A DNA stretch of 64,000 bases, taken from contig OZ038451.1 in the NCBI GenBank assembly GCA_964036195.1, positions 15,938,529 through 16,002,528 on the forward strand. Reading direction: 5' to 3'. Position numbers and translations under genes: made by a program. Source of the DNA: Sphaerolaimus hirsutus (lineage: Eukaryota > Nematoda > Chromadorea > Monhysterida > Sphaerolaimidae). A model generated the notes under the pieces. The model did not search any database. It was not told the DNA's origin and worked only from the letters and a program-made list of their open reading frames with translations. This document shows positions 3,961-58,654 of this stretch, one piece after another; within the stretch, counting starts at the first letter, position 1; every line of letters starts with the position of its first letter.

Positions 3961-3967
3961 TTTAAAT

Positions 3968-4584
3968 TAGGGTGTCAAATTTCCGTTTTCCGTTTCCGTT
4001 TTCCGCAGGCAAATTTTTTCCGTTTTCCGTGCCGTTTTCCGGCTGCTGAAATTTTTTTTCCGTTTTCCGTTCCGTTTTCCGGCAACTTCTTTTTCCGTTT
4101 CCGTTTTTCCGGCTCATTTTCCGTTTTCCGGCTAAATTTTAAGTTTTTCCGCCTTTTTTCTGTTTACTGCCTCAATTTCCAGTTTTTCCGCCTTTTTTCC
4201 ATTTTCTGCCTCAATTTTCCATTTTTCCGCCTCATTCTATTTTTTTTCTGGCTCAACTTTCTGTTTTCTGATCAGCCAAACTGGTAAAAATTCATGCAGA
4301 TTATCAATGATGTAAAAAAATTTCTGTTTCCAGCAAAATTTCAGCAAATTTTATCCGTTTTCCAGCAAAATTACAGCAAGTTTTTCCATTTCTGTGCAAA
4401 TTTGGTTTTTCTGTTTCCGTTTTTCCAGCCTCTTTTTCCGTTTTCCGGCCGTTGAAATTTTTTTCCGTTTCGGTTTCCGTTTTCCGCCAAGTGCAAATTT
4501 TTTTCCGTTTTCTGTTCCGTTTTCCGGCCGCTGAAAAAATTTTTCCGTTTCCGTTTTCTGTAAAAAATTTTTTTTGACACCCTA
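3968..4584. mobile_element. TAGGGTG hAT-like MITE with TTTCCG payload, copy 1
   Basis: The termini are TAGGGTGTCAAA and TTTGACACCCTA. They are flanked by an exact 8-bp duplication, GTTTAAAT (3960-3967 and 4585-4592). The body is almost entirely TTTCCG and TTTTCCG repeats on the plus strand, with no coding capacity. An 8-bp duplication is the signature of the hAT superfamily; the assignment rests on that and on the short inverted termini. Confidence 0.9.
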
Positions 4585-4763
4585 GTTTAAATCACGTTCA
4601 CTTAAATAATTCCCGGTAGGATGGATTTGCCCATTCATCACCACGTTTTTTATGCATTGTGTTCCTGAATTTTGATGCTTCACAGTGTGCATTGTTATCA
4701 TTTCGTGTGTGTGAGCGCATGTGTGTTTGGATGGGGGCGTGGATAGCAGAAAATTCTAATGCT

Positions 4764-4958
4764 GGTGCCACCAATTCCGGACTCTGTAAAAAGCCCTGTA
4801 AAATGTCAAATGTCATGCAAAGTGTCAAAAGTCATGGAAAATGCCCTGCAAAATGGCGACCGAGTTGCCATTTTGCAGCACATTTTCCATTACTTTTGAC
4901 ACTTAGCATGGCATTTGACATTTTACAGGGATTTTTACAGGTTCTGGGAGTGCCCCCT
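4764..4958 (+). mobile_element. Introner-family element (GGTGCCA...TGCCCCC)
   Basis: It starts GGTGCCACC, continues through GACTCTGTAAAA and AAAATGTCAAATGTC, and has the mirrored arm GACATTTTACAGGG followed by TTCTGGGAGTGCCCCC. Length and arm structure match the element that forms the OSBP intron at 25923-26129. This copy lies upstream of the recognised exons and nothing shows that it is spliced. Confidence 0.75.
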
Positions 4959-16400: not shown

Positions 16401-19400
16401 TGAGTGGGGTTTTTTGAGTTGATACCTAGCGGGAAGTTTTTCGCTGGGAAGCGTGCTTGGTGTTTTGATTCCAGCTTTTGCAGCTTGAATTCAAAATTTT
16501 CAGGCTTATAAGCGAATGTCAGAATCGGTATAAGGACTAAATTAGGTTTTTACTCGCGTCGCATATATATTCTGCCTAGGAAAGGTGAATACAACGCCTT
16601 AATACAAAAATATTTGCTAATAACTCTGCCATGCCATGCGTAAATAATTATCATGTTTAGTTGGTTGATTTTCAATCGCTAATTGTCAATTATTTTGAGC
16701 ATTCTTGTATCGGAATACAAACTAAAATAAAAACGCTTCATTTCGTCTGTGATTGTTTCTGTTGCTAAGCGCTAGTTCATTTTTAGTTGATTCTATGACG
16801 TCATAGGAGCGCGTAGAATTTTTTCTGACATAAATCACGACTTATGTTTGTTAGTTTGTTAATGCAAAATCAAATAAGTCAATGTCATAACAGTCATGTG
16901 GACGGTATCTAACAAATAGGCTGTTTTTTTTTGTCTGGGTCTGACTTAGCTGCGTGAAGACCACCTAGGCTTGAATTTTTGTTTGCGATTGAGTTCTCTG
17001 TGTGCACTTTGTGATATTGCTTTGCGTATGCATGCAGAATCGTATCAGATTTACATTTGCCAGAACTTCATTGCGAGTTTCTATCAGTGTGAGAATAAAT
17101 TGTTGGAATTCTTTTTTTTACAAAAAGTTTCTGTATATATACTTATTTTGTACAAAATCGATGTAGCATACTGTTCAAAGCACCGGTCGGTCTTGCACCG
17201 CCGGCTTTGCATATAATCGGCGGACATGACACTTTGCTTGGAAACCCAAATCTGCTTTTTAATCAGCATATTTCGGTTTTATACTCGGCGGACCGCAAAG
17301 TACGTGTAGAATCCTACCATAAGTTAATGAATACAATCTTGTGATAAGTTTCGTAATTAATTATTCCAGAGTAAAAACGAAATATTCTGATAAAAAAACT
17401 GTATAATTTTTGGTTCATTATTCAGATGTGTTATGGTAGGTTTCCATACTAAGTGTGATGTCCGCCGAGTATTTTTATACTATGGAATTAAAAATTACGA
17501 AATTTACCACAAAATTTTATTCATTAAATTATTGTAGGCTTCTGTACAAAAGTATGCGCTTCATTCCTGCGCGTGCCCTCGCACTAGCTTCTTCCGTTTG
17601 AGATAAACCAACTTCCGTCGTGTTTTTATCAACTGAAAATTGTGGGTGCAGCACTAGTGAATAGTTTATCGTCTCCTGATCTGAAAAATTTATGTGTGCC
17701 TTAGTTGACTGGAATGGTCCATTTTTTGTAATTGTCAACTCTTGCCTCCTTGCTGCTTTGTCAATTTTGAAGGATTTTTTTGCATTTTTAAAATTTGTTT
17801 CCTGTAGTCTGCCAAATTTCGTGTCAAATGACAAATTCAACACAAATTTTCAAATTTCAAATAAATTTTGATTGATCATTCATAAAAAGTAAATATCAAA
17901 TGCGCCCTTTAAAATGCATTTCCAAATAGCCGCTGCTCAAATAAATAGCTCTGATGAGTGTGCGTGCATGGCACCAGACCACAACGTTAATTCATTTACA
18001 GCTGTCACATTCAGCATGCATCTACACGTGTTTGTTGCATGCAACAAGACACGAATTTGTTTACTCTTAAGCATTTCTTATGCATCGAAGACACATACTT
18101 TTGTGGCTTTTTCGTGCACCAATGATAAAAATGCTTAGGTATTTTTTTCGTGTTTTTATTGTTTTACAGAACATTCATCCATGCATGGGAAAGCGCTGTA
18201 TTTCTTGTTTAGGCATTTCCAAAATGTTCCATTGGGCCTCCACACACTGGATGTCAACTGAATTCGTGTCAACTAAATGTCAACTGAATTTAAGTGATAC
18301 TGATTTCAACTTATCTATCTGATAGAGCATAGTCAGGGACGTATCCAGGATTTTTGAGCGGGGGGGGCTGCTTGTTTACGGGGGCCGGCGAGGGGGGGGG
18401 GGCTCAGCCCCCCCCCCCTAAAATTTTAGCTACATAGTGGCGGAATGGCGCCATGGCGCTGGCGCCATTAGTAGGCGCCACGCCATGGCGCTATTGGCGT
18501 TGGCGTCAGCGCCATGGAATGCTGTATATGTATGTAAATATACATACAAAACAGCCAAAAAACACAACATTGAGTGTATTTATAATGATTTGTGGCCACA
18601 TGAAGCAAATCCGATGATAATACCTTATGTCTGGTGAAGAATTCGCGCTTGCGCGCAAAAATTTTTACGCTGACGTTGAAAAAGTCGCATTCTCCGGTCA
18701 CTTTTTGGTCTCGCCCCGGGAGGGGGGGGGGCTGCAGCCCCCCCCGCCCCCCCCTGGATACGGCCCTGAGCATAGTTAATTTTACATCATGACACTTCAT
18801 TTTCATTGTTCCTGTTAAGTGTGATGCTTTTTACAAACTTCTTGTTTTATTCAATTGACACTGAGTTGACGCGAATTTGCGATGTCAACTAGTGTGTGTG
18901 GGCCCAATGGGAAGCGATCCTTTAAGCCGGCTTTAGAGTAGGAAACGGCACGGTATCGTACATCTTCTCACTGTCGACGAATCAGGAGTTTAATCGGGGG
19001 GGGGGTGCTTGCGGTTACCTCCATATAGGGGTATCCAAGATTTTGGCCCTTGCGGAGGCTGGATAGATAGCTAATCGCTCCTCCGGAAGGATAGATAGCT
19101 GAAAAAGTTTTCTGGGGGGGGCTCGCGGGGGCAAAATATGTAGGCTTTTTCAGTGCATAGAAGGCAGAAAGACGAAAAAAATCGCTAATAATCGGTTAAA
19201 AGTGCCTAAAAGTAGGTTTAAAATTGCTAAAAACAAGCATATAATCATGCATATAGACTATATATAAAACTATATAAAGTTGCGAAAATTAGTTATTTTG
19301 AGTGAAAATTGGGGCAAAATTTCTCAAAAACCACTCCTAGCTGAGCGATTTGCGGGGGGGGGGGGTTTGGGGGTAGTAGCCAAAATTTTTGCCTCGGGAT

Positions 19401-25400: not shown

Positions 25401-28400
25401 ACTAGTGTAAAACCCAGCCCCTGTGAAATACCCTGAAAGATGTCAATTGTCAAAGTCAAATGGTAAACGGAAGATACAGGACTGTTGACACTTTGCATGT
25501 CATTTGACGTTTTACAGGGCGTTTCCCATGGACCATGGGACCATTAGCATTGAAAAAATCGTCAATTTTTAGAAAATATAATTTGATATAATCTCAGAAA
25601 ATCTCTCAAAAAGAACATATAATTTAATCTCTCTAGAAAATCTTGAAAAAAATATAAATATCATAAAATCTTATATTTTCTGAGATTTTTTAAATATAAG
25701 TTTCCCTGAGATTTTTTCAATGCTAACCATGGTCGACGCATCCTCATTTCCACACGCAAAACCCATGCCGCCACACTCTTAATCACCCTCACAGATGTGC
25801 TACGTGGCCGTATTTCTAGTCTCTAGCTACTCCACAACCAGTAACAATCGCACGACGAAACCATTCAACCCGCTTTTGGGTGAAACGTTCGAGTGCGACC
25901 GTTACACGGACAATTACGGCTGGTGCCAATCCCAGACCCTGTAAAATGCCATGTAAAATGTCAAATGTCATGCAAAGTGTCTTACGTGATGTAAAATGCC
26001 CTGCAAAATGGCAAACGTACGTTTGCCATTTTACAGCGCATTTTACATGACTTTTGTCACTTCACATTTCACTTCACATGACATTTCACATTTTACAGGG
26101 TATTTTACACGGTCTGGGACTGCCCCCAGGAGATCATTGGCGGAACAAGTGTCGCATCACCCACCTGTAGCGGCCCATTTCGTGCAGTCCAAAAGGGGCT
26201 GGCAATTTTATCAGGAATTTAGCATGACTAGCAAATTTCGCGGCAAATATTTGTCGGTTATACCGACTGGTGTTTGTCATTTGAAGTTTGATGGGTGAGT
26301 TTTTGGGAGCGTTTTGAATAGGTTTGTGAATGGGGGTGGAATCTCAATTGGTAGAGATGCCGCAAATTCTATGGTCTTCCTTGATGAGTCACGTGTGAGG
26401 CGTAAATTTCGTAAAACGTATTTTCAGAAATAAAGTTCGAAGTGCAACACACCGCTCACCACTCCCATTTATTTATTTAAGATGTTTACTTCTCATTTGT
26501 CAGAAATTTCAAGTCTACTCGCGGAATTGGCACCAGAGATAGTTTCCAAAATTCACACCCAAATGTCACACTGAGTGGCTGTGATCCTGAACTCCATCAA
26601 GAAAAATCAACCCCTCCCAAAAATAAAAACTTAGCCCCGCCCACTTAATTAACCATTTTGCAGTACGGGCCAGCACTACACATGGCGAAGGGTCACGAGC
26701 ACCGTGCACAATATAATCGTTGGCAAATTGTGGATTGATCACCACGGGGAAACGGCTGTGAGGAATCACGGCACTGGAGATGTGTGCCTGTTGAAATTTG
26801 CACCTTACAGTTATTTTAGCAAGGAACCGCCTAGGAGGGTCGGTCTTTTTGTGGGGGTGTTTGTCGAACGATATATCGTTAGGTTTAAGCATTTGAGTTT
26901 TCTACAATGAGGTGGCCGTTAACTACAGTTGACGGAGATCAAAAATGACGCACTGTGGAAAACTCAAACACTTTCAAAACTAGTTTATGAGTTGTCGAAA
27001 TTTCGTGTGAAAACTAGTGTGCGCAGGGCCATTGTACATTGCAAATACCGGATTTCGACATTTTCTAATTCACATACGGTTCAAATTTTGTAAAATTATA
27101 AAGTTGAATAATGGTAAGTACCTGACCAGAGTGAAGTGAAGAAGTTGCAAAAAGGCGTGGAAAAGTCACATGGTACACTCCCTAAGCATCTCCAAGCCTG
27201 TATCCCGTTTTGACCCTTTTCAGTAGACAGGGGGTTTTTCCGGGGTGGTGGCAGGGTCTCATCAGTACTGACCACCATCTACCTACTTAGCACTGAACTA
27301 CTAAAAGCATTTTGTAATTGCATATTAAAATCGAAAAATCTTCCGATTGTATCGAATATTGACATCGATATCGAGAGGCCCCGTTGTTCTCCACCACATA
27401 TTTACCTTCACCCAAAATGTGTCCACTACCTACAAATCGCTCATAATTTTTACACATTCGATTTTGCACGCACAAGAGACATTTACACACCGCATAAATA
27501 TTCACAGGTAACTGGCATCGTAACAGATCGGACAGGACGGGCAAAATTCGCCCTGCAAGGTCGCTGGGATTCGCACATGGACATGTTGCGGATATTATCT
27601 ACTAAAGGAAATCAATGCGACCCGATTTCATTGGTGGATGAGGGGATGGATGGGTCTGGGAAACCGGTGCTCGAAACTGAACCACCGGTTACTTTGTGGA
27701 AAAAGGGACCATTGTTGTGAGTTTTTGAGTTTGCGTTTTTTCTGGGGCGAATTCTGAAAGTGGATAACAGTCAAGAGTGAATGTCAAGAGGCAAGTGACT
27801 AGTTAGGGTTGGCAAGCGATTTTTTTTAAGCGATTTTTTTTAAAAAAATTTCGATTTTTTTTTTTAAAAATCGCAGCACCCGTACCGATTTTTTTTACAA
27901 AAAATCGCTGGCAAAAAATTTTGGTACTCAAGCACTAGGTAAAATGCAAAAATTTTGCGCGCGAGCGCGCACTTTCATGCAAACAATCCACAAGTTGCTT
28001 TTTTCATGGCTTTGACAACCAATTTGGGGGGTGTAGTACCCATTTATGTGTGCTTTTAAGCGTGTAAGGTAGGCTGTGAATTATTTTAGGAAGTATTCAT
28101 AGTTATGCTTTGTGTTGTCACATCAAACATTTATGCAAAATGCATCCATTTTCACTTCCAATATCATTTATATTTTGTTCTGAGCAAGAACATGCTATTT
28201 CTGCAAATAAAATTGCAAATTGTCGACGAAGTGTGATTCACGTCACAAATATAACAATTTAATTACATTTACACTTAAAAATAACTGACTTTCAAGCTTT
28301 TCCGAAGCTCTACTGTACTTTTATTAGCACAGAAAGTATAAGTGTGCACTCCCTACCAGTTTATATGGCTTTTATTACCCCCAGAGGCGATTTTAGGCAG

Positions 28401-31400: not shown

Positions 31401-34400
31401 TTCCCGAATGAAGCAAGCGCTGAATACGCCAGGCTCATTTTTACATTTTTTGCGATTTTTTCCGTGTTTTTGCCTTCTACCCGTTGACGAAACTACACTT
31501 TCCAATACCCTGTGCGGCGGCCATGTAAACCCGCTGGCCATGTAGCGTCTAAAACTGTATATTTTTGACGTTTTTTATCACTTTTCACCGTTTAAAGTGC
31601 TGAACACATTAGAGTAAAGTCACATGATAAGAAATGTAATTATCTTTTTGACTTTATTCAGCACTTTCAAATGTGGAAAGTGACAAAAACGTCAAAAATG
31701 TCTATTTTTGGTACTTCTCAGTTTTCACGTTATTAAGTGAATATATTCCTTAAATTAAGTCAACATATGATGAGTAAAGATTTCTCATCATATACATGGG
31801 TCCACATGGCGGCCGGGTAGAATCACATGTCAGCCCGGTAAAGGTACATGGCCAGCGGGTTTACATGGTCAGGGAGCCTTGCCTTTCCAGCCCCTGCTAG
31901 CTTCGACCTGCCAAAATTTATTACTAATCAAGTTCAATTCGACTGGGTTTCGTGATCGAATTAATTCTGAAAAATCGGCATCGGGGTTGCAACTTGCAAT
32001 GAATGATATTTGTTTTCAGTGGAATATCCAACAGATTTTTTCCAAATTTAAGGCATATAGACACATTAAATAAAAAAATGTCGAACCTAACTTTGAATAG
32101 CAATGTAAATCGTGTTGACCCCAGAAACCTGATCACTGGTCACCTTATTTTTCTTTCCCTTTTCTAAGCAATCGCCAACCAGTAGTCCAATAATCATGAT
32201 ACCTAATCCCGTTCCAATGAATATGAAACACTCCATCGGGACGTTGAGATTTGAATCACCCCGCCTTCATAATTTAACGCGCGGGAAATTTGTGCAAATT
32301 TCGCTCGGAATTTTTTTTTGTGTTAGTGGGTGTGTTCTGCGTGTTTATGGCCGTATTTCGGATGGTCAAATGATTTTGTTGTGTTCGCGTTTCTGTGAAA
32401 AAAATTTCAGCAGACGCCACTAACTGTGAGATGATCGGAATGAAGCTCTCGCGCTATTATATTAACATGTATCTATGTAAAATATAAGTTTCACAAAATT
32501 TACCAAATTAACCCAAGTTTCTAAAGAACAGCTTAGTTTTTTTCAAGGAAGAATGCATCAGTATGTTCATATGTACACGTAATTTTTTGTATCGTATTTA
32601 TATCCTCTTGAAAAAGTTTATTCCAAATGATTATTTTGGATCCAATGGATTCAAAATATAAAAATAAAAAACACTCAAATAAACATCTCCCTCACTCGCC
32701 AGACCTAATGCCGACACATTCTACAATTTCACCCGACTGGCTGTGGAATTGAACGAGCCGGAACCGGGGGTTTGCCCGACAGATTCCCGATTTCGACCCG
32801 ACCAGAGACTTTTGGAACAGTGCCAAGTTGACGAAGCCAATGCGGAGAAAATGCGACTGGAGGAGAAACAGAGACAGAAGAGAAGAATGCGAGAGAATTG
32901 CGATGATCAAGGGGGTTGGTTTCTTGGAAAATGAGTATTTTTGGTATTGGATAATTTGAAGCGAAATGAAGTTGCATATTTATGGTCTGCATCCTGTAAA
33001 GTGTCATGCAAATTTGTTGCGCAACCGTGTAAAATTTTATCTTGCATTTTACCGGGAACTAGGTATACATTTTATAAATGACAATATATTTAAAATGTCA
33101 CGTTGTATTTTAGAGGGTGCGGTACTGGCGATTAGTGATGGAAAATAGGCATGGCGCTGGCGCCAGAGGGAAAAGCGCCCTGGCGCCTAGGGTTGACACT
33201 AGGGTGTCAAATTTCCGTTTTCCGTTTCCGTTTTCCGCAGGCAAATTTTTTCCGTTTTCCGTTCCGTTTTCCGGCTGCTGAAATTTTTTTTCCGTTTTCC
33301 GTTCCGTTTTCTGGCAACTTTTTTTTCCGTTTCCGTTTTTCCGGCTCATTTTCCGTTTTCCGGCTAAATTTTCAGTTTTTCCGCTTTTTTTCCGTTTTCC
33401 GCCTCAATTTTCCCTTTTTCTGGCTCAACTTTCTGTTTTCTGATTAGCCAAACTGGTAAAAATTCATGCAGATTGTCAATGATGTGAAAAATTTTCTGTT
33501 GCCAGCAAAATTACTGCAAATTTTGTCCACTTGCAGCAAAATTTCAGCAAATTTTACCCGTTTTCCAGCAAAATTTCAGCAAGTTTATCCATTTCCGTGC
33601 AAATTTGATTTTTCCGTTTCCGTTTTTCCGGCCTCTTTTTCCGTTTTCCGGCTGCTGAAAATTTTTTACCGTTTCTGTTTCCGTTTTCCGCCAAGTGCAA
33701 ATTTTTTTCCGTTTTCCGTTCCGTTTTCCGGCCGCTGAAAATTTTTTTCCGTTTCCGTTTTCCGTAAAAAAATTTTGTTGACACCCTAGTTGACACTTGA
33801 TTTTTTTAAACTGATTTTTTTTTTAAATCACGGTGGAAACTGATTGTAATTTTAAAAAATCAAAATGAAAAATTTATGGTAGACTTGCACTAGGTATTTT
33901 GCAATTTTTTGCGCGGGAGCGCGCAATTTCCAATACACATTACCATTGGTGGTGTTTTCATGGGTTTTGGGGCATTTTTAGTGTAAAATATTGCATTTAT
34001 TCATGCTACAGTGCAATAATAAGCCGTGATATGCTAGTGTAGTATAAAATATCCAGCCAATGTGCTCCCACATACTCCTACAGTGTGTAGCATCACTGGC
34101 AATGTATTAGCCTTCTCTTACAACCTTCTTTAAGCACTATTCCATGCTGAATTTCACTTGAAGTCACAAACGTTTGACAAAAGGTGATATACGTAATAAG
34201 TTGACATAAAATGGATATTTTTGATAGAAATCACAGCTTATAATGCTATCCCATGACTCCACAGTCATAATATGACCACAATAGACATAACAATGCATTG
34301 TCTGACACTTGACATACACATATTTTTTCTCTATACCCCCATTTTGGGAGATTTAAAAAAAATCTGATTTTAATTTAAAAAATCAATTTAAAAAAAATGA

Positions 34401-40790: not shown

Positions 40791-43700
40791 CTGGGGGGAT
40801 TTTTGGGTGTGTTGGTTTTTGTTTGGAGTGTGTTTGTTCTTCTTTGGCTGGGCCTGTGTTCGGCGATTGGGCGAGTAAAAATGGTAATTAGCCTTAAGTA
40901 GGGGGTATTTTTGTTGAATTTTATTGATTACATTCAACTATTCAAGCCTGTCACTCGAAAAATATGCTTATCGCTTAGTTCTTGTTGCTTCCCCGCTTGC
41001 GGAACTGACGCCTGGTGCGATGCTCATCATGTTAAGAATTATCCTAGACGGATGGTGCTATGCCGCGTCGCTTTTGGTGCAAAATCTTCATTAAAATGGC
41101 GCTAGCTGCGGAAAAATCTACCCAGTGCCATATGGCGCCGTTATAATTAAGCGCCGCTTATTATAAATTGCTCTGTTTATTCTTATGAGTAAACTGTCTA
41201 TATAAAAATCAATTGATCATTTTATTCAGCGTAAATTTGTGCCCCTTAAAAAAGAGGCACAGAAACATGCAAAAGTAACTCTTAGAACCCCCTTCAAATA
41301 CCCTACCCGACTCACAGTACAGCGAATTATAGCCCATGGGGAATAATCCACCGTAATCCCGGTCGATATACCGTATCCTTCGAATGTCCCTGGGCACAAA
41401 TGGGTCGATGTGGTGGTCCAAAACTAGTTCTAGTCTGCCGTCGGCGCGCCGCCGCTGCAGCCGACCGTATAACTCAGATACGAGCACCACCTGTAGGAGG
41501 GGGGGGGGGGTTAGTTTGAGTGGTGGCATCATTTGTGCAGTTCAGAGTGACAAGGAATTTTGCAAGTGAAAAGTATTCATTCTCATCATGTACAACTTTT
41601 CAATTACTTCACGGTTTACTTTGCTTTCAAAAAGTTTTCAAAATGCGCCGTCTTGTTACACAACAAGTTGTCGAATTGACCAAAAATTTGCAGGTTGTTA
41701 AATTTTACGCCCCCTCAAACATTTGTAGAACACGCAATGCTGACGTTAATTTTCCCAAAAACAACTCCAATTTCCCGCAATCTCATCTGCATTTCTTATT
41801 AATTATAGAAAAACGCACCTTGCCTCCAACAATAGCGAATGCAGTTTTGGCATATTGCAATTTTCTGCCGAAGTAATGAATCTTGTGTATATACTGCACT
41901 CCAACTAAATCTATACACATCGTGGTAATTGCCAAGCCCACGACGATGTATAGAAGAATTACAGCTAGGTAACCATCTCTTTTCGGAATTAAGTCTCCGA
42001 AACCCACCTGCGAGTTTTCGCGTTCTTGTGAATTTTAAGGGTGGAATGATTTTTTTTGTGAGTACGCAAGGACCCTTTTGCAAATGGCGAATGCTTGTAA
42101 TGGGTAGACTTCGGGCTAAGTAAATTGCGCGTGACTGGTGCTAACTAACGTTTTACTATAGACCTTTCACCCAAATCTACCCAGGGGGCAGTTCCGAACC
42201 CTGTAAAGTGTAAAGTCCAGTGTCAAATACGCAAATGTCATGTAAAATGTCAATCAAAACAAAAGAGAAAATATTTTTTTGTGCCTACACACTCGTTTTA
42301 GTATTACTGAAATTTTGATACTTTGCATGGCAATTATCAGATTTGCATGATACCTTGCACGACAATTGACAAATTTGCATCACATTTTACGTAACATTGA
42401 CACCTGACTTTACACTTTACAGGGCTCAGGACTGGTACGATCTCGTCTGCATCAAAAACAAGCATTTTATCAGCAAGACTTTTACCAGAAAATTGCGTGT
42501 TCACCGCAATTCAGGGACATTTTTAACCCCCCCCCCCACCCCCCTCACCGTAGTCATAGTAATAAAACTATAGTAAAACGAGGCCAAAAATGTCCACGGC
42601 TCCAAGGTGCTCATGAGCCAGCCGCCCAGCGCAGTATAACCCAGCAAAATGGCCAGGACAATCGTAGCGGGAGGGGTCACTTCAATGTCCAATAAATCGT
42701 CTGGCTCTTCTAGTTCTTGCTCGCGGCAGTGTTCGCAATCGTGCTGCGTGCAGGGACCCCCGTGCGCGGGGTTCGCTGTCTGTGGGGGGTGCGGGGGGGC
42801 GGTTAGAGGGGTTCGATTTACCTATTTTAGTTCACTTGCTGCATGTGGAAATAGACGCCCTGTATCCTGTTGCGTTGTGTATCCGTTTCCGTGTGGTTAA
42901 ATTTTTAACGGTATGTGCTCCTTGAAATGACTGACTTTTGTAATGTTTTTAGGGTGAACTCGGCAAGTGAACAAATAACGAGAAGTGGTATGTGATATTT
43001 TTGTAAGTAAAGTTGTAAGTCTATGTCAGTCTAAGTGACAAGTGTTTTCATTTGGCAATTGATTCATTTGTCACAATTTTTATTTGTCACTTGACTTCCA
43101 ACACCTCGGCTGTCCACTTACCACGTTTCTTGTCACTTATCCACTTGCGTCATTGGAATTATAAGTACTTGATTTCCTATTTACGAGTTTGTAAATTCAC
43201 ATCATATTTAAAATGAGTTTCACTTACAGTGTGGTTGCCCATGCAGTGTTCGTGTTTTCTTTTCGCGCGCTTCGCCCTCCATCTGTCCGTGCATCTGAGT
43301 GTAAAATTTACCGATTAATTTTCGTCGATCTCAAGCTGAGAACTATTTTTTTTATACCTTCAAACTGCCTGAATATAAAACCCGAAATCAAAAGCCTCTT
43401 CAAAACGGTTCATTACTGTAAGTACCGGTTGAATGATTCCCCCCCTTGAATAATTCCTCCCCTTGAGTAATTCCCCTCCATATGATGAATTTAGGTATTG
43501 TGTCCACTTGTGTCAACAATTTGAACAAAAATTTTATTTTTCTTAATGTAACAGATTTCGTGAAATGAGTTGATTAAACATGCTTGACTATTTTGACGCT
43601 ATAATAATTCCCCCTTGAATTCGTCCTTTTGAATAGACCCCTCAAAAAATCGGACGAAAAAATGCTCCCCCAGAGGAATTATTCAATCAGATACGGTATA

Positions 43701-46700
43701 CCATCAAAAACGTACCTTCGCGCCCAGCCGGAAGCTCGTCTGCGGCAGGTGAGCCAATGTTTGTACGACCAAATCAAGTGTTCCGAGAAAAACTTGCCTA
43801 TGTCCGCAATTGTTCTGCGAGTTTGAGAAAGGCACTTTTTATGAGTTGATGAAAAAATTTCCATTCTCCATTTCCGATTCTCTGATATCGGTGCTTTAAA
43901 GGATGATGCCATTCTATTCACAGAGAACTCCAAAATTTCCAAAATTTCAAAATAAATAAAAACGTCCTAAACTAACACAAGAGTGAGTGGTATGCCAAAA
44001 AGTGCAAAAGCTACACAGGCCAGCCGGCCACCGTCGGTCACTGGCACTGGAAACCCGTAACCTTCGCGCGACAAAAAATGGAAAATTTCAAAATTTTGGA
44101 AGAGTAAAAAAATTAAAAAAAATTTGTACCTATAGTAGTGACCACGGAAATGGTGAAGAAAATCGCCGTTTGAAAGTTCCACACTTCAATCGTTTCATTG
44201 ATTCTGATCTCTCTGGCAGTGAGAAAATGTTTGGTGTAATAGTCGAATAAGTCGTCGGACATGTCCAATAAGTGACCGGTTGCTTCAGATTTCCATTTTG
44301 ATATTGGCACGGAATTATTTCTGGCCAAGTGCCAAAGGTGATCGAGGAAAGCCTCTCTGCGTTTGGATTCTGTTGGTTTTGAATGTTTAGAGATTTACTT
44401 TGTTGCAATCTTTAATTTATCGTATTTTTAATTAGGTAATTTGATCTTTAATTTTTTATTCAGCTGACTTTTTAAACTTTTTTCATTAAAACGAGGAAAG
44501 ATCAACACAACATCAGTATCACCGAGTATAATTTTTAACCCAATACTCGAGTTGACCGGCGAAATGATAGCTTTCAAATGGCGCACCTGGTGTCCCAAAT
44601 ATCAGTCAACTGCTGTTGTTTAGTCTCTCTCTCGTGCGGCCCCTCGATCCACAGGAAGAAGGCGGCACCGAGCAAAGTGTACGTGCACGTCAACAGCACC
44701 AGGCCCACGTGCGGCAGGATTAACTTGGCGTACTGGCGGGGGGGGGGGTTGTTTGGGTGTGAGGAGTTGTGGGGAGTTGTTGTAAGTGCCAGAACCTTCA
44801 AAAGGTATGCTGCGTGTTTGAATTCGCTCGCTGCCAAAATGTGGGGAAAATTACACGAAAAGTAAACATATACGCCAGTCACTTTACACCCTGCACGCGT
44901 GGTTCCCGCTGGAAGCGTGCCAACAATTTTATTACGCATGTGATTTTCATAAAAAGGCAACTCTGTTATAACGCTATACGATAACTTATTCACAACATAG
45001 ATTTATTCCATCTTTTATACAAAAATCACATGCTTCATCATCATTGGCACGCTTCCAACGTGAGACATAAATGAGTGCGAGGGCAGAGCATCATGTCCGC
45101 CGAGTTTACCTACTTATCACTTCGAAAGATTTTGTGGAAAAGATCTGCCTAAATATGTCTGGAACGTCTGCCTAATGTTTGCCTTGACTCTATGGTGTGG
45201 GCTGGAAACTCACTACACGCGCAGTTTACCCCAGTGGGGGGGGGGCAAAAAAATGGAACTCGTAACAAGGGTTCAAACGGGACCGCGGTCCCGCTACATG
45301 GTTCGGCAAAAAGTCGGGACTGGGGCGGTCCCGGTCCCGACACCCCAGTCCCGGTCCCGGTCCCGACAATTACAAAATGCCAGTCCCGGTCCCGACACTC
45401 CAGTCCCGGTCCCGGTCCCGGCATTTTTCAGTGGTCCCGACAAGGGATGGAAAAAAATGACGTTTTTTCCATCCCTTCTACAATTTTTTCCGTTGCTCCT
45501 AACTATAGTTTGAGTCAATAAATATAGGCATACGAGACAAGCGGCAGTACTTTATGGTGCTATAGATAGCATCATAAGTGGTTATTTCTGCCGAAAAATC
45601 TATTTCTGACAACCAAATCCCAGTCCCGGTCCCGACAAATCTCAGTCCCGGGTCCAACACCCCAGTCCCGGTCCCGGTCCCGGTGCCGACAATTGAAAGA
45701 GGCCAGTCCCGGTCCCGACACCCCAGTCCCGGTCCCGGTCCCGGTCCTGACATTAGTAAATTTTTGGTCCTGGTCCCGGTCCGGAAAACTGGTCCCGTTT
45801 GAACCCTACACGTAACCCCCATTCAAACCTTAACCAGCCCCCTTCTCTGATCCAAGCTAATTTCATCGTCCTCACTCATAATATCCCTGGCATCGTGATG
45901 TGTGGAATCGAGTCCGGCACCCCCCGCACCCCCTGTAAATTGCTCCCCCGTGCTGAATTCCTGCGTCGTGTCCCCCGCAGTGGCACAGAGGGCGCGAGCG
46001 GATTCTGAATTGGGACTGAGTTGATTGCTGTCGTGGTTGTTGTTGTAGCCGTGGTTCGGCTCCGTGTCCGAGCTGCCCGGCGCGTCGGCGAATTGGAACT
46101 GGGGGAGTTGGGTGGGGGTTATTACATGGGGGATGCTTTGGGTATGGCCCTTTTCCTGGGTGTTACCCTTTTGGGTGTGACCCCTTTTTCTGGGTGTGGC
46201 CCCTTTTTCTGGGTGTGACCTTTTTGTGACCCTCTTTGCATGATGCCACTTTGCACCTGTACTATTCTATCGTTTTCGAATCCGGTGCCAAACGGCATGG
46301 TGCCAACCCCAGACTCTGTAAAGTGTCAAATGTCATGTAAAATGTCCTGCAAAGTATCAATTGTCATGTAAAATGTCCTGCAAAGTGTCAATTGTCATGC
46401 AAACCTTAGTAATGAAATCTCTCCTTTTTGTTTTGATTGACATTTCAAATGACATTTGACACTTTACTTTACAATTTACAAGGTCTGGGAGTGTCCCATG
46501 GGCCATGGCGCCAGGCGCCAATGGAAGCTCAAGAACTCCAGAAAATGGCGCCATAAAACAACAACAAAACAAGCACCAACCTTCGCATCACCCTGAAACG
46601 CCTGCGCGCCCACAGGTTGCTGACCCCTGTTATGCAGCAATTCATCCAATTCCCATTGTTCCGGTTGTTTTGTAGACAAGCGCCTTCTGTTGCCCGCGCC

Positions 46701-55700: not shown

Positions 55701-58654
55701 TTTTTCTCAAAATCAGTTTTTGTGGATCATCACTGGATCAGTATCAGGACCAGGAGCACACCATTATTAATGATAAAATATGCAAGCACCTAAATACATT
55801 TCTACACCACACCTCAAACTTGCACCTTACTTTCAGCCACCCAAACATAAACACAAGCACATAAAGATGTCATGCTCCAGCTAGGTGTGAATATTGTACA
55901 TGCTCAATAATACGTTAAATATTCATCCACCTCTATCTGTGACAAAAGCAGGTGGTCACGGTGTTAGGAGCTGGGTAGAGTATAAAATTTTCGAAGTGAC
56001 AGTCAAAAAATTTGTGAATTATAAATTTACCTTTGATTTGACTTAGCACTTAAAACTTCACTTACCGTTTCCACTTTTCTAGTCACGTTCACTTTTCTAA
56101 TTTCATTTTTCTATGTCACGGAAATTTCTAAATACAAAACAAAGTATAAGCAGTGTCTTAGGTGTTCAGCCACGCGGAAGGCTTGATTTCCACTGACTCG
56201 AGACGAGTGCTTTACTTTGAGTTCAAATCGATATTTACTCCACACAGTATGTGTGTATACCATGTTTTTCACTAGAAATTTCCAGGGGGCACTCACAGAC
56301 CCGGTAAAAGACCCTGACATTTTACAGGGTCTTTTACATGACACATCGCATTTTACAGGGTCTTTTACACTTTACAGGGTATTTTACAGGGTCTAGGAGT
56401 GGCACTAGGGGGTCAATTTTTGCAAAATATTTTTGACCGGAGCTTATTCAAGGGGGCTGGAAGTGAAGAGCTTAGGAAGCGTTATTTAGGTGTGTTTTTT
56501 AATTTTCGGTATTCACGTTGTCATATGAGTTTGAAGAACGATGTTTGGAGAAAAGTGTTAAAGTCTGAAAAAGTGTTTTTCTGGTGTATTTATTTTGGTA
56601 TGCATACTATACAATATACATGTTCTTTAAATCTTTGAATTTGTCAAATGCAGAGCTTGTGTAATGAATCATTAAATCGATATGGGTGAAATAGGTCATA
56701 ATAAATATTAGGTTTTCAACTAGGTAAGTCACATTTATTTTTTGCGATCACACATACGCAAAAAATTAAGGTTACTTAGTTGACAACCTAATATGTGAAA
56801 GTGCGTACAGGTACTTGATCAACTAGATAATGTTTTTAAAATACCTGTTCACACAGCTACTGTATATTGATATGAAATTTCGAATACTTATAATGTGTAG
56901 GTAATTGCTTGTGTTTGTTAAGGATTAAGAGACACCTGAAAAAGCACTTATTTTCCACCAAAATACCTTCTTGGTTTTTTCCAGAATATGTGGATCAGGT
57001 AAATTTTTGAATAGTGCAATTTCAACGAATATTTTTTTGTCTTATTTGCTTACTAAGTAGAATACATAACAGCATAATGATGTGTAAATACTTCTTGTCT
57101 GGGCCAAGAAGAGACAATGTAAAGTAACATGTTAAGTGACCTTCAAATTCCTGGAAAAGTATTTATAGGACATCTGTCAAGCGCATTTAAAAGCATACAA
57201 AATACCGTATATTGGGCCCACACACACTAGTTTACCAACACGAAATGCTCGACCATTTTGGTAAACTGTTTTGACAAAACAGTACGAAACACCGTACAAA
57301 TCTGTACAGTGTTTCGTACTGCTTTGTCAAAACAGTTTACTAAAGTGGTCGAGCATTTCATGTTGGTAAACTAGTGTGTGCGTTGGCATTGTGTAATTAG
57401 GAACATTATTATTTTAAGTTTTATTGCTGATTTTATGTGAATATTTACACAGAAATAGCGATGCGAATCCGAATATTCTGGAACAGACGCAACATTTCCT
57501 GATTTATCGGGCATAGTGAATTTCTCCCCAAAATCTCCCCCACTAACCCTCCATCTTTGCCTCCTTCTTCCGTTGTAAGTGTTGGCGATAACTGGCAAAT
57601 CGCCAAGTGCATCCCTCCTCTCGGCCGCCGTAGAATCACCCCAGGCTTCAAAATGAGCATAGTGATTCATATCGAACTGGGGGCCAATTACGCACGTGGA
57701 TGGGCGACGGGAAAAGTGAGCGGTGGTAAGAAAATTTGTAACTGGTAATTGAAGTCAGAAGTAACCTAGTGTGTGAGAAGTATTTATTTTGCTGACAACT
57801 TTGTTTGTCGCCTAAAAGTTTGCTTGTGACCTGGGGGAGAGTCACAGACCTTGTAAAATGTCAAGTGACATGCAAAGTGTCAAAAGTCATGTTTGCCATT
57901 TTCCAGGCTTTTATTTTTTTTACATGGCTTTTGAAACTTTAGTAGTATAGTTGAGTGAACGTTCAATCAGCTACTACACATTGCAAGATATTTGACATTT
58001 TACAGGGTCTGGGACTGCCACCTGGGAGAGTTCCAGATCCTGTAAAAAAACCTGTATAGTGAAAAGGACCTTGTAAAATGTAATGCGCCATGTAAAAGTC
58101 CCTGTAAAGTGTCATGTGTATCCAATCTTCTTGTATCGTATCCAAATCTTATGTTTTGTATCATACTAATATTTAGATACCATACAACAAGATTTGGATA
58201 CATATGACACTTTGCAGTGTCCTTTACACGTCACATGACATTATAAAGGGTATTTTACATGACACATGACATTTTACACGGTCTTTTACACTTTGCATAG
58301 TCTTTTACAGGGTCTGGGACTGGCACCTGACTTACCACTTACAACTTTACTTGTCACTTAGCACGTCACCAGTCACTCGTCCACTAGCGTGATTGGCACC
58401 TGGTGAATGGGTTGATTTGCGCTGGTGCCAGCCTCCCCCGCGCCCGCGCCATTATTAGCCGGGGCGAATTTCATCGGCACGCGTTGATAATAATACGACA
58501 TGGCGCCCGCGTTGATGTTGTTGTTGTTGTGCCGCTGCAGCGGCGTGCAGTTCGCGTCCGACGAAGTGTTCGAGCCGCGCGACAATTTCCGCCCCGTGAA
58601 CGAACGCCGCCCGATTGCCGGCGTGGCGCACAGGTCGGCAGCGGCCGCCGCCGC
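40582..58654 (-). CDS. Two-pore-domain (K2P/TWK-like) potassium channel gene, minus strand, 5' incomplete
   Basis: Exons in coding order: 58654-58400, 57676-57449, (gap), 55284-55105, 54092-53965, 48308-48100, 47799-47683, 46715-46581, 46098-45835, 44732-44587, 44356-44130, 44061-43977, 43814-43716, 43294-43228, 42779-42549, 42007-41819, 41490-41316 and 40790-40582. From 55284 onward all junctions keep phase, giving 819 residues. K2P channels are dimeric leak channels with four membrane segments and two pore loops per subunit. Both filters are visible: TTIGYGFP and TTVGFGDL. The stretches TIADIGKFFSEHL and AITTMCIDLVG resemble the nematode TWK class. The core from M1 is 475 residues, a usual K2P length. 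The N-terminal region, over 500 residues, is unusually long. It may be partly an alternative transcript or a separate gene ending at the TGA at 47671. Confidence 0.9.
41316..41490 (-). CDS. K2P exon: post-M4 cytoplasmic domain
   Basis: Acceptor CCTACAG after a C-run, phase 0 entry. It encodes VVLVSELYGRLQRRR, LVLDHHIDPFVPRDIRRIRYID and GLFPMGYNSLY. It continues the VGGK|VVLVSELY block seen in TWK channels. Exit is phase 1 at GTGAGT. Confidence 0.94.
41819..42007 (-). CDS. K2P exon: second selectivity filter and M4
   Basis: 63 codons, phase 0 both ends. It begins VGFGDLIPKRDGY, the second filter, and continues with YLAVILLYIVVGLAITTMCIDLVG (M4) and QYIHKIHYFGRKLQ. Acceptor CTCGCAG, donor GTGCGT. 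Confidence 0.97.
42186..42433 (-). mobile_element. Introner-family element inside a K2P intron
   Basis: On the minus strand it runs GTACCAGTCCTGAGCCCTGT, AAAGTG ... CACTTTACAGGGTT, CGGAACTGCCCCCTGG. It is in the sense orientation of the gene and wholly inside the intron between the M3/P2 and M4 exons. The actual splice sites lie outside it, so this copy is passive. Confidence 0.75.
42549..42779 (-). CDS. K2P exon: Cys/His-rich loop, M3 and second pore helix
   Basis: 77 codons, phase 0. It begins TANPAHGGPCTQHDCEHC, then EEPDDLLDIEVTPPATIVL, M3 (VLAILLGYTALGGWLM), and FLASFYYSFITMTT, the pore helix that runs into VGFGD. Acceptor CCCCACAG, donor GTGAGG, with a C-run just downstream of the donor. 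Confidence 0.96.
43228..43294 (-). CDS. K2P micro-exon: basic M2-M3 loop
   Basis: A 67-bp exon after acceptor TTTACACTCAG with consensus donor GTAAGT. It is the only segment that reconciles the phase-2 exit of the M2 exon with the phase-0 entry of the M3 exon. It encodes RCTDRWRAKRAKRKHEHCMG, a basic stretch with a nuclear-localisation-like RAKRAKRK that is more likely a membrane-proximal charged loop. Confidence 0.85.
43415..43702. mobile_element. ATTCCCCCTTGAAT inverted-repeat element
   Basis: The left side has GTACCGGTTGAATGATTCCC and several CCCCTTGAATAATTCC words. The right side has GGAATTATTCAATCAGATAC. It lies in the intron between the M2 and micro-exons and resembles a diverged TATTTCGAGG element. 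Confidence 0.45.
43716..43814 (-). CDS. K2P exon: end of M2, TIADIGKFFSEHL
   Basis: Acceptor AACTCGCAG, phase 2 both ends, donor GTACGT. It encodes TIADIGKFFSEHLIWSYKHW and TCRRRASGWARR. The join reads GIPLTLVTIADIGKF, a string typical of TWK-class channels. Confidence 0.95.
43977..44061 (-). CDS. K2P exon: first selectivity filter and M2
   Basis: 85 bp. The intron before it splits the first Gly codon of GYG (phase 1). It encodes YGFPVPVTDGGRLACVAFALFGIPLTL. Acceptor GCGCGAAG; donor GTTAGT, chosen so that Val is completed by exon 43814. Confidence 0.94.
44130..44356 (-). CDS. K2P exon: extracellular cap and first pore helix
   Basis: Acceptor CCAAACGCAG, phase 2 entry. It encodes EAFLDHLWHLARNNS, LLDMSDDLFDYYTKHF and INETIEVWNFQTAIFFTISVVTTIG, the cap helices and pore helix P1. 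NNS and NET are potential N-glycosylation sites on the extracellular side. Donor GTACAA, phase 1. Confidence 0.94.
44587..44732 (-). CDS. K2P exon: first membrane segment M1
   Basis: Acceptor CCCCGCCAG behind a run of eleven C on the coding strand. It encodes YAKLILPHVGLVLLTCTYTLL, GAAFFLWIEGPHERET and QQQLTDIWDTR, which is M1 plus the start of the cap. Phase 0 in, phase 2 out. Donor GTGCGC. Confidence 0.95.
45267..45808. mobile_element. (A/T)AGGGTTCAAACG hAT-like MITE with GGGACC/GGTCCC payload
   Basis: The ends are AAGGGTTCAAACGGGACC and GGTCCCGTTTGAACCCTA. The flanks CTCGTAAC and CACGTAAC match in 7 of 8. The body is GTCCCGGTCCCG arrays around a short A+T-rich core. It lies in the K2P intron before M1. 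Confidence 0.88.
45835..46098 (-). CDS. K2P-linked exon: acidic N-terminal region before M1
   Basis: 88 codons, phase 0. Acceptor ACTCCCCCAG, donor GTTAAG. It encodes FQFADAPGSSDTEPN, NNNHDSNQLSPNSES and MSEDDEISLDQRRGL, a disordered Asn/Ser/Asp-rich segment. It runs directly into YAKLILPH of M1 and is therefore part of the channel. Confidence 0.88.
46300..46510 (+). mobile_element. Introner-family element, antisense in a K2P intron
   Basis: It starts GGTGCCAACCCCAGACTCTG, with AAAGTGTCAAATGTCATG, the mirrored TTTACAAGGTCTGGGAGTG, and TCCCATGG at the end. It is oriented against the gene, so its own donor/acceptor could not act in this transcript. It lies inside the 482-bp intron between exons 46715-46581 and 46098-45835. 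Confidence 0.8.
46581..46715 (-). CDS. K2P-linked exon: N-terminal region
   Basis: 45 codons, phase 0. Acceptor TGCAAATCAG, donor GTTGGTGC. It encodes ESLSTGAGNRRRLSTKQ, WELDELLHNRGQQPVG and FQGDAK. RRRLST fits a basophilic kinase site pattern. No family is recognised outside the channel. Confidence 0.82.
46873..47485. repeat. CGGCGGA palindromic repeat hosting a PIF/Harbinger-like MITE
   Basis: The outer phrases ACTCGGCGGAATCCAAAG, AGAATCCTAC on the left and CACTAAGTGTGATG on the right match the repeat at 17173-17482. Confidence 0.5.
46978..47389. mobile_element. 412-bp palindromic MITE with TAA target duplication, copy 1
   Basis: The left end is AGCAAGAATTACAGCTCAGC and the right end GCTGTAATTCCGGCT. 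TAA flanks both sides. The arms GGCGTTTGACGTGAAATGATG are nearly perfect inverted repeats over the whole length. A 3-bp TWA duplication suggests PIF/Harbinger. Confidence 0.85.
47683..47799 (-). CDS. K2P-linked exon: Ala/Arg-rich segment, with an alternative stop just downstream
   Basis: Acceptor TCATTCTCAG. It encodes RAHYRQRLAANAAARAAHRG, then SAFAITNNAHSVCTMDI. The 39-codon version with donor GTGCGCGC keeps phase 0 into exon 46715. If unspliced, the frame reads three more codons and stops at TGA 47671-47673. This exon could therefore be the last exon of a shorter transcript or of a different gene. Confidence 0.75.
48100..48308 (-). CDS. K2P-linked exon: Ser-rich segment
   Basis: Acceptor ATCTGCCAG, phase 1 in, phase 0 out, donor GTGGGC. 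It encodes PTHHTPSDTQSKPIK, MLQVNLSSLHLQPSSG and GADTPKRKVGLMPSQSYVSQ. Disordered, with TPKRK; no family recognised. Confidence 0.82.
48660..49980. other. No recognisable gene
   Basis: A 143-codon open frame at 49426-49856 (plus strand) is within what chance allows in this composition. It has no recognisable motif. Confidence 0.4.
50021..50317. mobile_element. TAGTGATGG GGCGCC-payload hAT-like MITE
   Basis: The ends are TAGTGATGGAAAAG and TCTTTCCATCACTA. The flanks CTCCGGCC / CTCCTGCC match in 7 of 8. The body is GGCGCTTTTGG / AAAGCGCCA repeats. Confidence 0.85.
50603..50829. mobile_element. TAGTGATGG GGCGCC-payload MITE, second copy
   Basis: It begins TAGTGATGGAAAAAGCG and ends GGCGCTCTTCCATTA. 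The body is GGCGCCAGGCG / AGCGCCAAAAGCGCC repeats. The right end is slightly eroded. Confidence 0.75.
50858..51462. mobile_element. GGCCGTAAAGTA inverted-repeat element, copy 2
   Basis: The left end repeats GGCCGTAAAGTAAA twice and the right end has TTTACTTTACGGCC twice. The interior AAATACGTTTACGTTTCC and AGTACGCGAGTA match the copy at 34614 in inverted orientation, with an extra 230 bp. Confidence 0.75.
51862..52498. mobile_element. TAGGGGTGAC hAT-like MITE with TTTAAA payload, copy 4
   Basis: The ends are TAGGGGTGACAC and TTTCCAACCCTA. The exact 8-bp duplication GTCATGCC occupies 51854-51861 and 52499-52506. The interior is nearly identical to 33797-34440. Confidence 0.93.
52510..53960. 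other. No recognisable gene; MITE remnants
   Basis: Around 52800-52980 are AACTCAAATGCGTTC / AAAACTAGTGTGTGTAGGACC words like the CACTAGTTTTC elements at 26887 and 60132. The rest shows nothing. Confidence 0.4.
53965..54092 (-). CDS. K2P-linked exon with hydrophobic segment
   Basis: Acceptor AAATTGCCAG, phase 2 in, phase 1 out, donor GTGCGA. It encodes RKESSMLEVALRMPLLLAGAN, AQTVHQNQMAKIMK and STPTNVGP. It was found because it alone links the phase-2 exit of exon 55105 to the phase-1 entry of exon 48308. MLEVALRMPLLLAGANA resembles a signal peptide but lies internally in this model, so it could also be an alternative start. Confidence 0.75.
54424..54579. mobile_element. Small CAGTGATGG GGCGCC-payload MITE
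   Basis: It begins CAGTGATGGAATG and ends TTTTCCATCACTA. The body is GGCGCCATT repeats. The flanking 8-mers CTTCAAAT / CTTGCATT match only partly. Confidence 0.7.
54598..55021. mobile_element. 424-bp palindromic PIF/Harbinger-like MITE with TTA duplication, copy 2
   Basis: The ends AGCCGGAATTACAGCTC and GAGCTGTAATTCCGGCT are perfect inverted repeats with TTA on both sides. The body mirrors itself throughout and matches 46978-47389. Confidence 0.9.
55105..55284 (-). CDS. K2P-linked exon: N-terminal segment
   Basis: Acceptor TTACATCCAG, phase 2 both ends, donor GTGAAT. It encodes NSPNSIEKLVEKMFNTSRIL, RAIRQHDANQHSSDSTQS and ATVSQLDNYSDGTELTGFG. No family recognised. Its phase-2 entry does not fit the exit of 57449, so at least one short exon is missing between them. 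Confidence 0.8.
55300..56280. other. No recognisable gene
   Basis: An intron of the K2P-linked gene, A+T-rich, in which I see neither coding nor repeat structure. A missing short exon may lie here or in 56.4-57.4 kb. Confidence 0.4.
56283..56408 (-). mobile_element. Introner-family element, short copy
   Basis: On the minus strand it reads AGTGCCACTCCTAGACCCTG ... GGTCTGTGAGTGCCCCCTGG. It has four internal TTTTACAGGGTCTTTTACA units instead of the usual arms. Confidence 0.75.
57220..57385. mobile_element. 165-bp hairpin MITE, CCCACACACACTAGTTTACC
   Basis: A near-perfect hairpin from CCACACACACTAGTTTACC, then GAAATGCTCGACCA, to TGGTCGAGCATTTC and GGTAAACTAGTGTGTG. It belongs to the CACTAG-ended group. 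It lies in a K2P intron. Confidence 0.8.
57449..57676 (-). CDS. K2P-linked exon: FDMNHYAHFEAWGD segment
   Basis: Acceptor TTGGCCCCCAG, phase 0 in. It encodes FDMNHYAHFEAWGDSTAAE, RRDALGDLPVIANTYNGRRR and VPEYSDSHRYF. The 3' end is either GTAAAT (57449, phase 0) or GTGTAA two bases earlier (phase 1). No family recognised. Confidence 0.75.
57826..58022 (-). mobile_element. Introner-family element, first of a pair
   Basis: On the minus strand it reads GGTGGCAGTCCCAGACCCTG with AAAATGTCAAATATC, ending GGTCTGTGACTCTCCCCCAG. It is in the sense orientation of the K2P gene, inside the intron between exons 58400 and 57676. Confidence 0.75.
58023..58331 (-). mobile_element. Introner-family element, second of a pair
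   Basis: On the minus strand it reads GGTGCCAGTCCCAGACCCTG ... GGATCTGGAACTCTCCC. The longer centre holds the palindrome ATCCAAATCTTGTTGTATGG / TCTTGTATCGTATCCAAATC. It abuts the first element of the pair. Confidence 0.75.
58400..58654 (-). CDS. K2P-linked exon: Ala/Asn-rich segment, furthest upstream seen
   Basis: 85 codons, phase 0. Acceptor AATACCCAG. It encodes six Ala, DLCATPAIGRRSFTGRKL, SRGSNTSSDANCTPLQRHN, and FAPANNGAGAGEAGTSANQ. The donor GTGCCAATCA matches the introner start. No start codon is identified, so the gene continues upstream. Confidence 0.78.

What the first reader, a model, noticed from the sequence alone, without database searches (positions are those of the whole stretch)
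25923..26129. A transposon that is exactly one intron: a putative animal introner in OSBP
The 207-bp intron in the lipid-binding domain is coextensive with a dispersed element. The donor lies in its first bases (GTGCCAAT) and the acceptor is its last bases (TGCCCCCAG). Removing it restores GWRSLAEQVSHHPP with no gap, so it is spliced out precisely. Introners are known in some algae, fungi, tunicates and other animals. This family, with GGTGCCA / TGCCCCCAG ends and TTTTACAGGGT arms, is not one I recognise.
Basis: partly seen in the sequence, partly recalled or inferred. Interest (0 to 1): 0.93.

Follow-up and report, generated by a model that had tools for sequence, protein, structure and literature searches.

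The report
Transposon that becomes introns in a worm
A short, hairpin-shaped jumping DNA element has landed in the oxysterol-binding-protein gene of a roundworm-like animal and appears to be cut out as a ready-made intron; thousands of sister copies lie in the same genome, and of the sixteen we could place in known protein domains seven lack the usual AG at the intron's end.

Summary
Window 25923-26129 is exactly one intron of OSBP: a 204-bp member of a high-copy hairpin transposon family plus one 3-bp copy of its target. It is an introner by anatomy; splicing itself is inferred, no RNA was available.

Genome-wide, 26-mers of the two ends (up to 2 mismatches) match 6,179 and 7,258 times, controls 0. 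The consensus of 74 copies is a perfect 190-bp palindrome except for positions 2, 4 and 7 from each end: one end is GTGCCA (donor), the other TGCCCC. Insertion duplicates 3 bp, mostly CAG or CTG, and the copy supplies the intron's last bases. This fits a NuwaI-type (PIF/Harbinger superfamily) MITE.

Exact removal leaves Pfam domains above cut-off in 16 sense copies, OSBP included (match crosses the junction in 14), and 1 antisense copy. Seven of the 16 end in CTG, so exact excision means GT..TG introns; nine end in AG. In OSBP the exonic target copy is CTG, the intronic one CAG.

The host is nematode-like, unidentified. Related transposases exist; the partner was not found.

The parts
25923..26129 (+). 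OSBP intron = introner (204-bp element + 3-bp right target copy)
   Evidence: exact removal restores the OSBP lipid-binding domain
25923..26126 (+). hairpin MITE, donor end GTGCCA, acceptor-side end TGCCCC
   Evidence: RNA fold -101.1 kcal/mol, z -14.2
25920..25922 (+). left target copy, CTG (exonic; TG belongs to the split Trp codon TG|G)
   Evidence: family target rule CWG
26127..26129 (+). right target copy, CAG; supplies the acceptor AG (differs from left copy by one base)
25795..25922 (+). OSBP exon upstream (MCYVAVF...DNYG W)
   Evidence: start inferred from CACAG acceptor
26130..26294 (+). OSBP exon downstream (RSLAEQVSHHPP...KFDG), followed by GTGAGT donor
   Evidence: end inferred from donor
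4765..4956 (+). related copy, flanks CTG/CTG; not shown to lie in coding sequence
46300..46497 (+). related copy with 3-bp flanks ATG/ATG
56286..56405 (-). related shorter copy

Best explanation
It is an introner: a non-autonomous hairpin DNA transposon (MITE) of NuwaI type (PIF/Harbinger superfamily) that inserted at a CTG in an OSBP exon, duplicated those 3 bp, and was usable as an intron. The left end brings the 5' splice site (GT of GTGCCA). The right end brings a C-rich tract (TGCCCC). The duplicated target supplies the last 3 bases: with CAG the intron is GT..AG, with CTG it is GT..TG. In OSBP the intronic target copy reads CAG opposite an exonic CTG, most simply a later T-to-A change that gave a canonical acceptor. 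Pairing of the two arms should bring the splice sites together, which may help recognition of the weak donor and of CTG acceptors. Shown here: sequence anatomy, copy number, target duplication, restoration of domains, strand bias. Inferred: transposition by a NuwaI-like transposase, splicing itself, use of TG acceptors, the order of changes in OSBP, the role of the hairpin.
For: Exact coextension apart from 3 bp. Left-end 26-mer 3149+3030, right-end 26-mer 3610+3648, controls 0. 103 distinct copies with flanks: CAG/CAG 38, CTG/CTG 15, CTG/CAG 13, CAG/CTG 2, other 35; target consensus C-CWG-G; these tallies lean to CAG, because 30 loci were chosen by a right-hand CAG and 30 by BLAST with a query ending in CAG, and they include segmental duplicates (L002, L003, L006). 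Unselected exact counts: left 527 CAG, 506 CTG. In 29 copies of loci chosen by the right end, 97% keep T at element position 2. Consensus of 74 copies: perfect palindrome except positions 2, 4, 7. Junction peptides by one rule on both strands: sense 10 copies above Pfam cut-offs among 99 of 103; antisense 0 among 99 of 103, one sub-threshold hit. Five more sense copies among 15 hand-picked sense peptides. From 10 further copies, 16 of 27 junction peptides were given (7 sense, 9 antisense): one sense (BUD23) and one antisense (LDLa) above cut-off. No gap at the junction against solved structures: OSBP (92), trypsin family (90), ABCD1 (91), BUD23 (104). The OSBP intron just upstream has GT..AG and the next one starts GTGAGT.
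Against: No RNA data. The donor GTGCCA is weak. One antisense copy sits in an LDLa exon (L096), where exact removal would be GG..AG, so another donor (GTCCCA 6 nt in, adding 2 residues) is used or that gene is broken. Seven of 16 domain-supported copies would need a TG acceptor. Alternative in-frame GT..AG introns exist for some CTG copies. No transposase with these ends was found in 3 of at least 163 DDE_Tnp_4 places. The genome-wide excess of CAG over CTG at the right end relative to the left is slight (odds ratio 1.15, z 1.8).
Confidence: 0.93

Rival explanations
1. A MITE inserted inside an older, pre-existing OSBP intron and now fills it.
For: Secondary insertion into introns is common for MITEs in general (recalled).
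Against: No intron sequence is left on either side; the element edges meet the splice sites and a 3-bp target copy explains the rest. The same exact coincidence recurs in unrelated genes. P0001 seems to lack the intron.
Confidence: 0.04
2. The element is removed from DNA (somatic precise excision or programmed elimination), not from RNA.
For: CTG/CTG copies have no AG at the restored junction, yet exact removal with one target copy restores proteins. One antisense copy in an LDLa exon.
Against: Strand bias: 10 sense against 0 antisense under one selection rule, 11 against 1; DNA excision needs no strand. The ends depart from symmetry where a donor and a pyrimidine tract sit.
Confidence: 0.04
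3. Rival only to the GT..TG part: CTG-flanked copies use other GT..AG pairs and add a few residues, or sit in dead or segregating null alleles.
For: In-frame alternatives exist for several copies, e.g. L026 with donor at 0 and an AG 9 nt before the end, adding 3 residues.
Against: The alternatives differ from copy to copy and would insert residues into conserved cores (trypsin SYP^WQV, BUD23 DMG^LGLPF, GPCR C^WSPFF). CTG targets are not depleted in domain-supported copies: left copy CTG in 11 of 16, or 9 of 13 without the three loci chosen by their right end, against 506 CTG to 527 CAG genome-wide.
Confidence: 0.4

Closest known systems
Introners of Gozashti et al. 2022 (PMC9860276; parts 1-3 of 7 and passages read), in particular the Chrysochromulina type that carries its 5' splice site and co-opts the 3' splice site, with 4-bp target duplications
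   Same: Repeated intron-sized elements with target duplications, donor in the element, acceptor from outside it, frame restored; animals among the hosts (copepods named).
   Different: Here the target is 3-bp CWG, the element is a near-perfect palindrome with more than 6,000 end matches, the host is nematode-like, and 7 of 16 domain-supported copies end in TG.
NuwaI group of the PHIS (PIF/Harbinger) superfamily, Han et al. 2015 (PMC4482050; passages read)
   Same: 5'-CWG-3' target duplication, animals, TIR start GGG at the right end (GGGGCA).
   Different: Left end starts GTG instead of GGG, which is what makes the donor; whole element palindromic; no transposase of its own.
Tunicates with non-canonical introns (PMC13326754; listing and passages seen)
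   Same: Animals in which introner transposons with weak splice sites and non-GT/AG introns are discussed together.
   Different: The passages seen concern 5' splice sites, U2AF and U6; here the donor is GT and the acceptor varies AG/TG with the target.
Rare GT-TG introns of human genes (GNAS, TSPYL2; PMC4176328, passages read)
   Same: GT donor with TG acceptor.
   Different: Single cases there; here a whole family would have it by construction.

Membership tests
Introner | Introns in unrelated genes share sequence up to both splice sites | tested here: met
   same ends at exon junctions in 16 Pfam-supported sense copies (match crosses the junction in 14, flanks it in 2)
Introner | Removal restores the coding frame of the host gene | tested here: met
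   no gap at the junction; (cuticlin L021) has a 10-residue gap next to one of its two junctions
Introner | Spliced from RNA | not testable with these tools
   no RNA data held
Introner | Transposon signatures (target duplication, inverted repeats) | tested here: met
NuwaI (PHIS superfamily) | CWG target duplication | tested here: met
   CAG or CTG on both sides in 68 of 103 copies, identical on both sides in 53
NuwaI (PHIS superfamily) | TIRs usually start GGG | tested here: inconclusive
   right end GGGGCA yes, left end GTGCCA no
NuwaI (PHIS superfamily) | TIR length 12-61 bp | tested here: not met
   arms of 95 bp, the whole element; the published range is for families found by transposase homology
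NuwaI (PHIS superfamily) | DDE transposase of the Nuwa cluster with Myb/SANT partner | tested here: inconclusive
   at least 163 DDE_Tnp_4 matches in the genome; 3 loci opened, none with these ends around the transposase
PIF/Harbinger in the strict sense | TWA target duplication | tested here: not met
   target CWG
MITE | short, non-coding, high-copy, inverted repeats, target duplication | tested here: met

The most novel reading that the evidence does not exclude
A nematode-like animal has been seeded with hundreds to more than a thousand coding introns by one NuwaI-type MITE whose only departure from perfect symmetry is a splice polarity. Because the transposon uses CAG and CTG targets about equally, about half of these introns are born with a TG 3' splice site and are still removed exactly. 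The spliceosome there would accept GT..TG on a genomic scale, perhaps because the hairpin holds the two ends together; CTG-born introns can then drift to CAG, as in OSBP.
Probability: 0.5. Interest if true: 0.9.

Novelty: new variant of a known kind. Interest (0 to 1): 0.77.

Why it matters
Introners explain bursts of intron gain; Gozashti et al. found them in only two animal groups (PMC9860276), and how their splice sites arose is hard to see. Here near-perfect symmetry makes it visible: three positions separate a plain palindromic MITE from an intron with polarity. The CAG/CTG target choice is a natural experiment in many copies on whether a metazoan spliceosome needs an AG at the 3' splice site; RNA-seq of this one species would answer it.

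Tried and rejected
Older-intron insertion and DNA-level excision were considered and placed low (see rivals). Canonical alternatives for CTG copies were enumerated for seven copies; none is common to all. A selected shift from CTG to CAG at the right end looked strong in the first sample (CTG/CAG 9 against CAG/CTG 2), but the BLAST part of that sample favours CAG ends, and genome-wide counts give only odds ratio 1.15, z 1.8; one copy (L099, CAG/CTG, sub-threshold MSP domain) goes the other way. A plain ORF-length test was uninformative because the flanks are G+C-rich. SL1 RNA search to test for a nematode: no hit, but the control rang nowhere. COX1 search for the species did not complete. Autonomous partner: not found in three opened 4-5 kb loci; L102 has a weak pair of end-like matches (4 mismatches) on one side only, about 190 bp apart, perhaps a diverged small copy.

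Dropped before counts: copies with flanks under 150 bases or duplicate flanks (126 to 103). On each strand 99 of 103 peptides went to Pfam. One search used 15 hand-picked sense peptides, 14 of them from 82 alternates, with no antisense counterpart. One search used 16 of the 27 peptides; the 10 copies are plus-strand entries taken in order from the 100 places listed. Weak matches below cut-off not counted: VGCC_beta4Aa_N, SBP_bac_3, AMP-binding, two cadherin families, AA_permease; LIM, DUF7066, LRR_4; TMEM71 antisense; Motile_Sperm and others. Three of the 16 loci were chosen by their right end (L070, L076 by CAG; L100 by CTG); without them the acceptor tally is 7 AG to 6 TG.

Print: (introner) found 67 papers, 40 listed; (introner + Harbinger) found 1, fungal, not opened; (introner + nematode) found 16, 15 listed, passages of two read. 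No title or abstract opening in these listings names an introner in a nematode or from this superfamily. The library is open-licence only.

Full report
What is there. The window lies in a 348-Mb assembly at G000:C2:15938529-16002528. At 25923-26129 an OSBP exon is interrupted by 207 bp with GT..AG ends; without it the frame reads ...FECDRYTDNYGWRSLAEQVSHHPP.... The joined peptide matches Pfam Oxysterol_BP with 96.1 bits and human OSBP without a gap at the junction. The OSBP intron just upstream has GT..AG ends and the next one downstream starts GTGAGT.

The element. Searching the genome with the intron gave 84 matches, many being both strands of one palindromic place, although only 40 of 1770 candidates were scored. 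The first 26 bases, with up to 2 mismatches, occur 6,179 times (3149 forward, 3030 reverse; reversed control 0), and the corresponding 26 bases of the other end 7,258 times (control 0). Among 103 distinct copies with flanks from 90 loci and the window, the 3-bp flanks are CAG/CAG in 38, CTG/CTG in 15, CTG/CAG in 13, CAG/CTG in 2 and other in 35, with a weaker C before and G after. This sample leans to CAG by the way it was drawn and holds a few segmental duplicates. A window copy has ATG/ATG, so the triplet belongs to the target, not to the element. Exact counts show that both targets are used about equally: left end 527 CAG and 506 CTG, right end 1218 and 1020.

Symmetry and polarity. The consensus of 74 copies is 190 bp long and equals its own reverse complement except at positions 2, 4 and 7 from each end: GTGCCAA on the left, GGGGCAG on the right. 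Position 2 is the T of the donor GT. On the right the same positions give TGCCCC, a short pyrimidine tract, followed by the target copy. So polarity as an intron is all that distinguishes the two ends of the consensus. NuwaI elements, the CWG-target group of the PIF/Harbinger superfamily, usually start GGG (PMC4482050, passages); the right end keeps this, the left end does not. That the donor arose from such a symmetric end is inference. As RNA the OSBP copy folds into one long hairpin, -101.1 kcal/mol against a shuffled mean of -41.8.

Other copies are introns too. I removed each copy plus one target triplet, took the best junction-spanning peptide of at most 38 residues on each side, by the same rule on both strands, and ran Pfam. 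Sense: 10 copies above family cut-offs among 99 of 103 given (OSBP, ABC_membrane_2, Glyco_transf_92, Lig_chan-Glu_bd, CUT_N, CUT_C, CHGN, Trypsin, calpain domains, TRP_2); in 8 the match crosses the junction, in Lig_chan and calpain it flanks it (positions worked out). Antisense: none above cut-off among 99 of 103. Fifteen hand-picked sense peptides added PhoLip_ATPase_C, 7tm_1, LRR_6, Ly-6_related and STAG, all five crossing the junction, LRR_6 only just. Ten more copies were taken because their right flank is CTG; 16 of their 27 junction peptides were searched and gave one sense match (methyltransferase, BUD23) and one antisense match (LDLa) above cut-off. In all, 16 sense copies, 14 with the match across the junction, and 1 antisense copy.

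The TG acceptors. Of the 16, nine end in AG (eight CAG, one AAG) and seven in CTG; without the three loci chosen by their right end, 7 and 6. The CTG copies lie in ABC transporter D, cuticlin, chondroitin N-acetylgalactosaminyltransferase, trypsin, P4-ATPase, a GPCR and BUD23. Exact removal leaves no gap at the junction in ABCD1, trypsin and BUD23. With a 3-bp duplication only one placement gives a GT donor, and it then ends in TG. In-frame GT..AG alternatives exist for some copies but are not shared and would insert residues into conserved cores. CTG targets are not depleted in these copies (left flank CTG in 11 of 16). I therefore think GT..TG splicing more likely than not, at about 0.55, but this needs RNA. 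GT-TG introns are known as rarities in human genes (PMC4176328, passages).

Scale. Of 30 loci taken in contig order by an exact left 26-mer (L031-L060), 5 contain a Pfam-supported sense copy (LRR, CHGN, calpain, trypsin, TRP; the LRR one hand-picked). Scaled to 6,179 ends this is of the order of a thousand coding copies, a rough figure from a small sample. Twenty-one of the 90 loci hold two or three copies; same-orientation pairs 19, opposite 6.

Host. A spliced cuticlin from L021 with two introners has 19 homologues; the 14 with an organism name are nematode proteins, best 54% identity to Toxocara. Cuticlins are themselves a largely nematode family (recalled), so this is suggestive. A C. elegans-type Ly-6 domain agrees. 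The SL1 search was uninformative. The species is not identified.

Relatives. P0001, a 97-residue JGI protein record 76% identical to the two OSBP exons, runs across the junction and ends where the next intron begins here. This points to an uninterrupted exon in a relative; its DNA was not seen.

Transposase. At least 163 DDE_Tnp_4 matches at E up to 0.001 exist in the genome, 150 of 306 candidates scored. One opened locus encodes a PIF/Harbinger-type transposase in several exons. None of three opened loci has the introner ends around the transposase. The autonomous partner is unknown.

Verdict. It is a new variant of a known kind: an introner from a CWG-target, almost perfectly palindromic MITE, in a nematode-like animal, with 7 of 16 domain-supported copies lacking the acceptor AG. 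Results that do not fit neatly are the antisense LDLa copy, the slight genome-wide CAG excess and the missing partner.

Noticed in passing
L096 (G000:C1:6924300-6925000): Copy inserted antisense in an LDL-receptor class A exon; exact removal would be GG..AG on the coding strand, a donor GTCCCA 6 nt in would add 2 residues.
   Followed up: partly
L038, downstream of the introner copy: Another hairpin element with the same outer bases (GTGCCAGTTCCGC...GCGGAACTGGCCCC), seen by eye, so sibling MITE families may share these termini.
   Followed up: no
L056-L058 (C1 about 31.37 Mb): Array of related elements close together.
   Followed up: no
L004 copy at 1499-1690: Copy that begins GCGCCA, a possible GC-AG intron, flanks CAG/CAG.
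   Followed up: no
window 3955-4600 and 33190-33790; 1500-2400, 9700-10200, 19000-19400: Two other dispersed repeat families (TTTTCCGTTTTCCG type and GATAGATAGCTGAGCGGCCTCCG type).
   Followed up: no
G000, e.g. C1:20514088-20514720: Many PIF/Harbinger-type transposase places with nearly equal scores, perhaps a recent expansion.
   Followed up: partly
window 42501-42821 and 44574-45002, minus strand: Open frames that by eye resemble a two-pore potassium channel.
   Followed up: no
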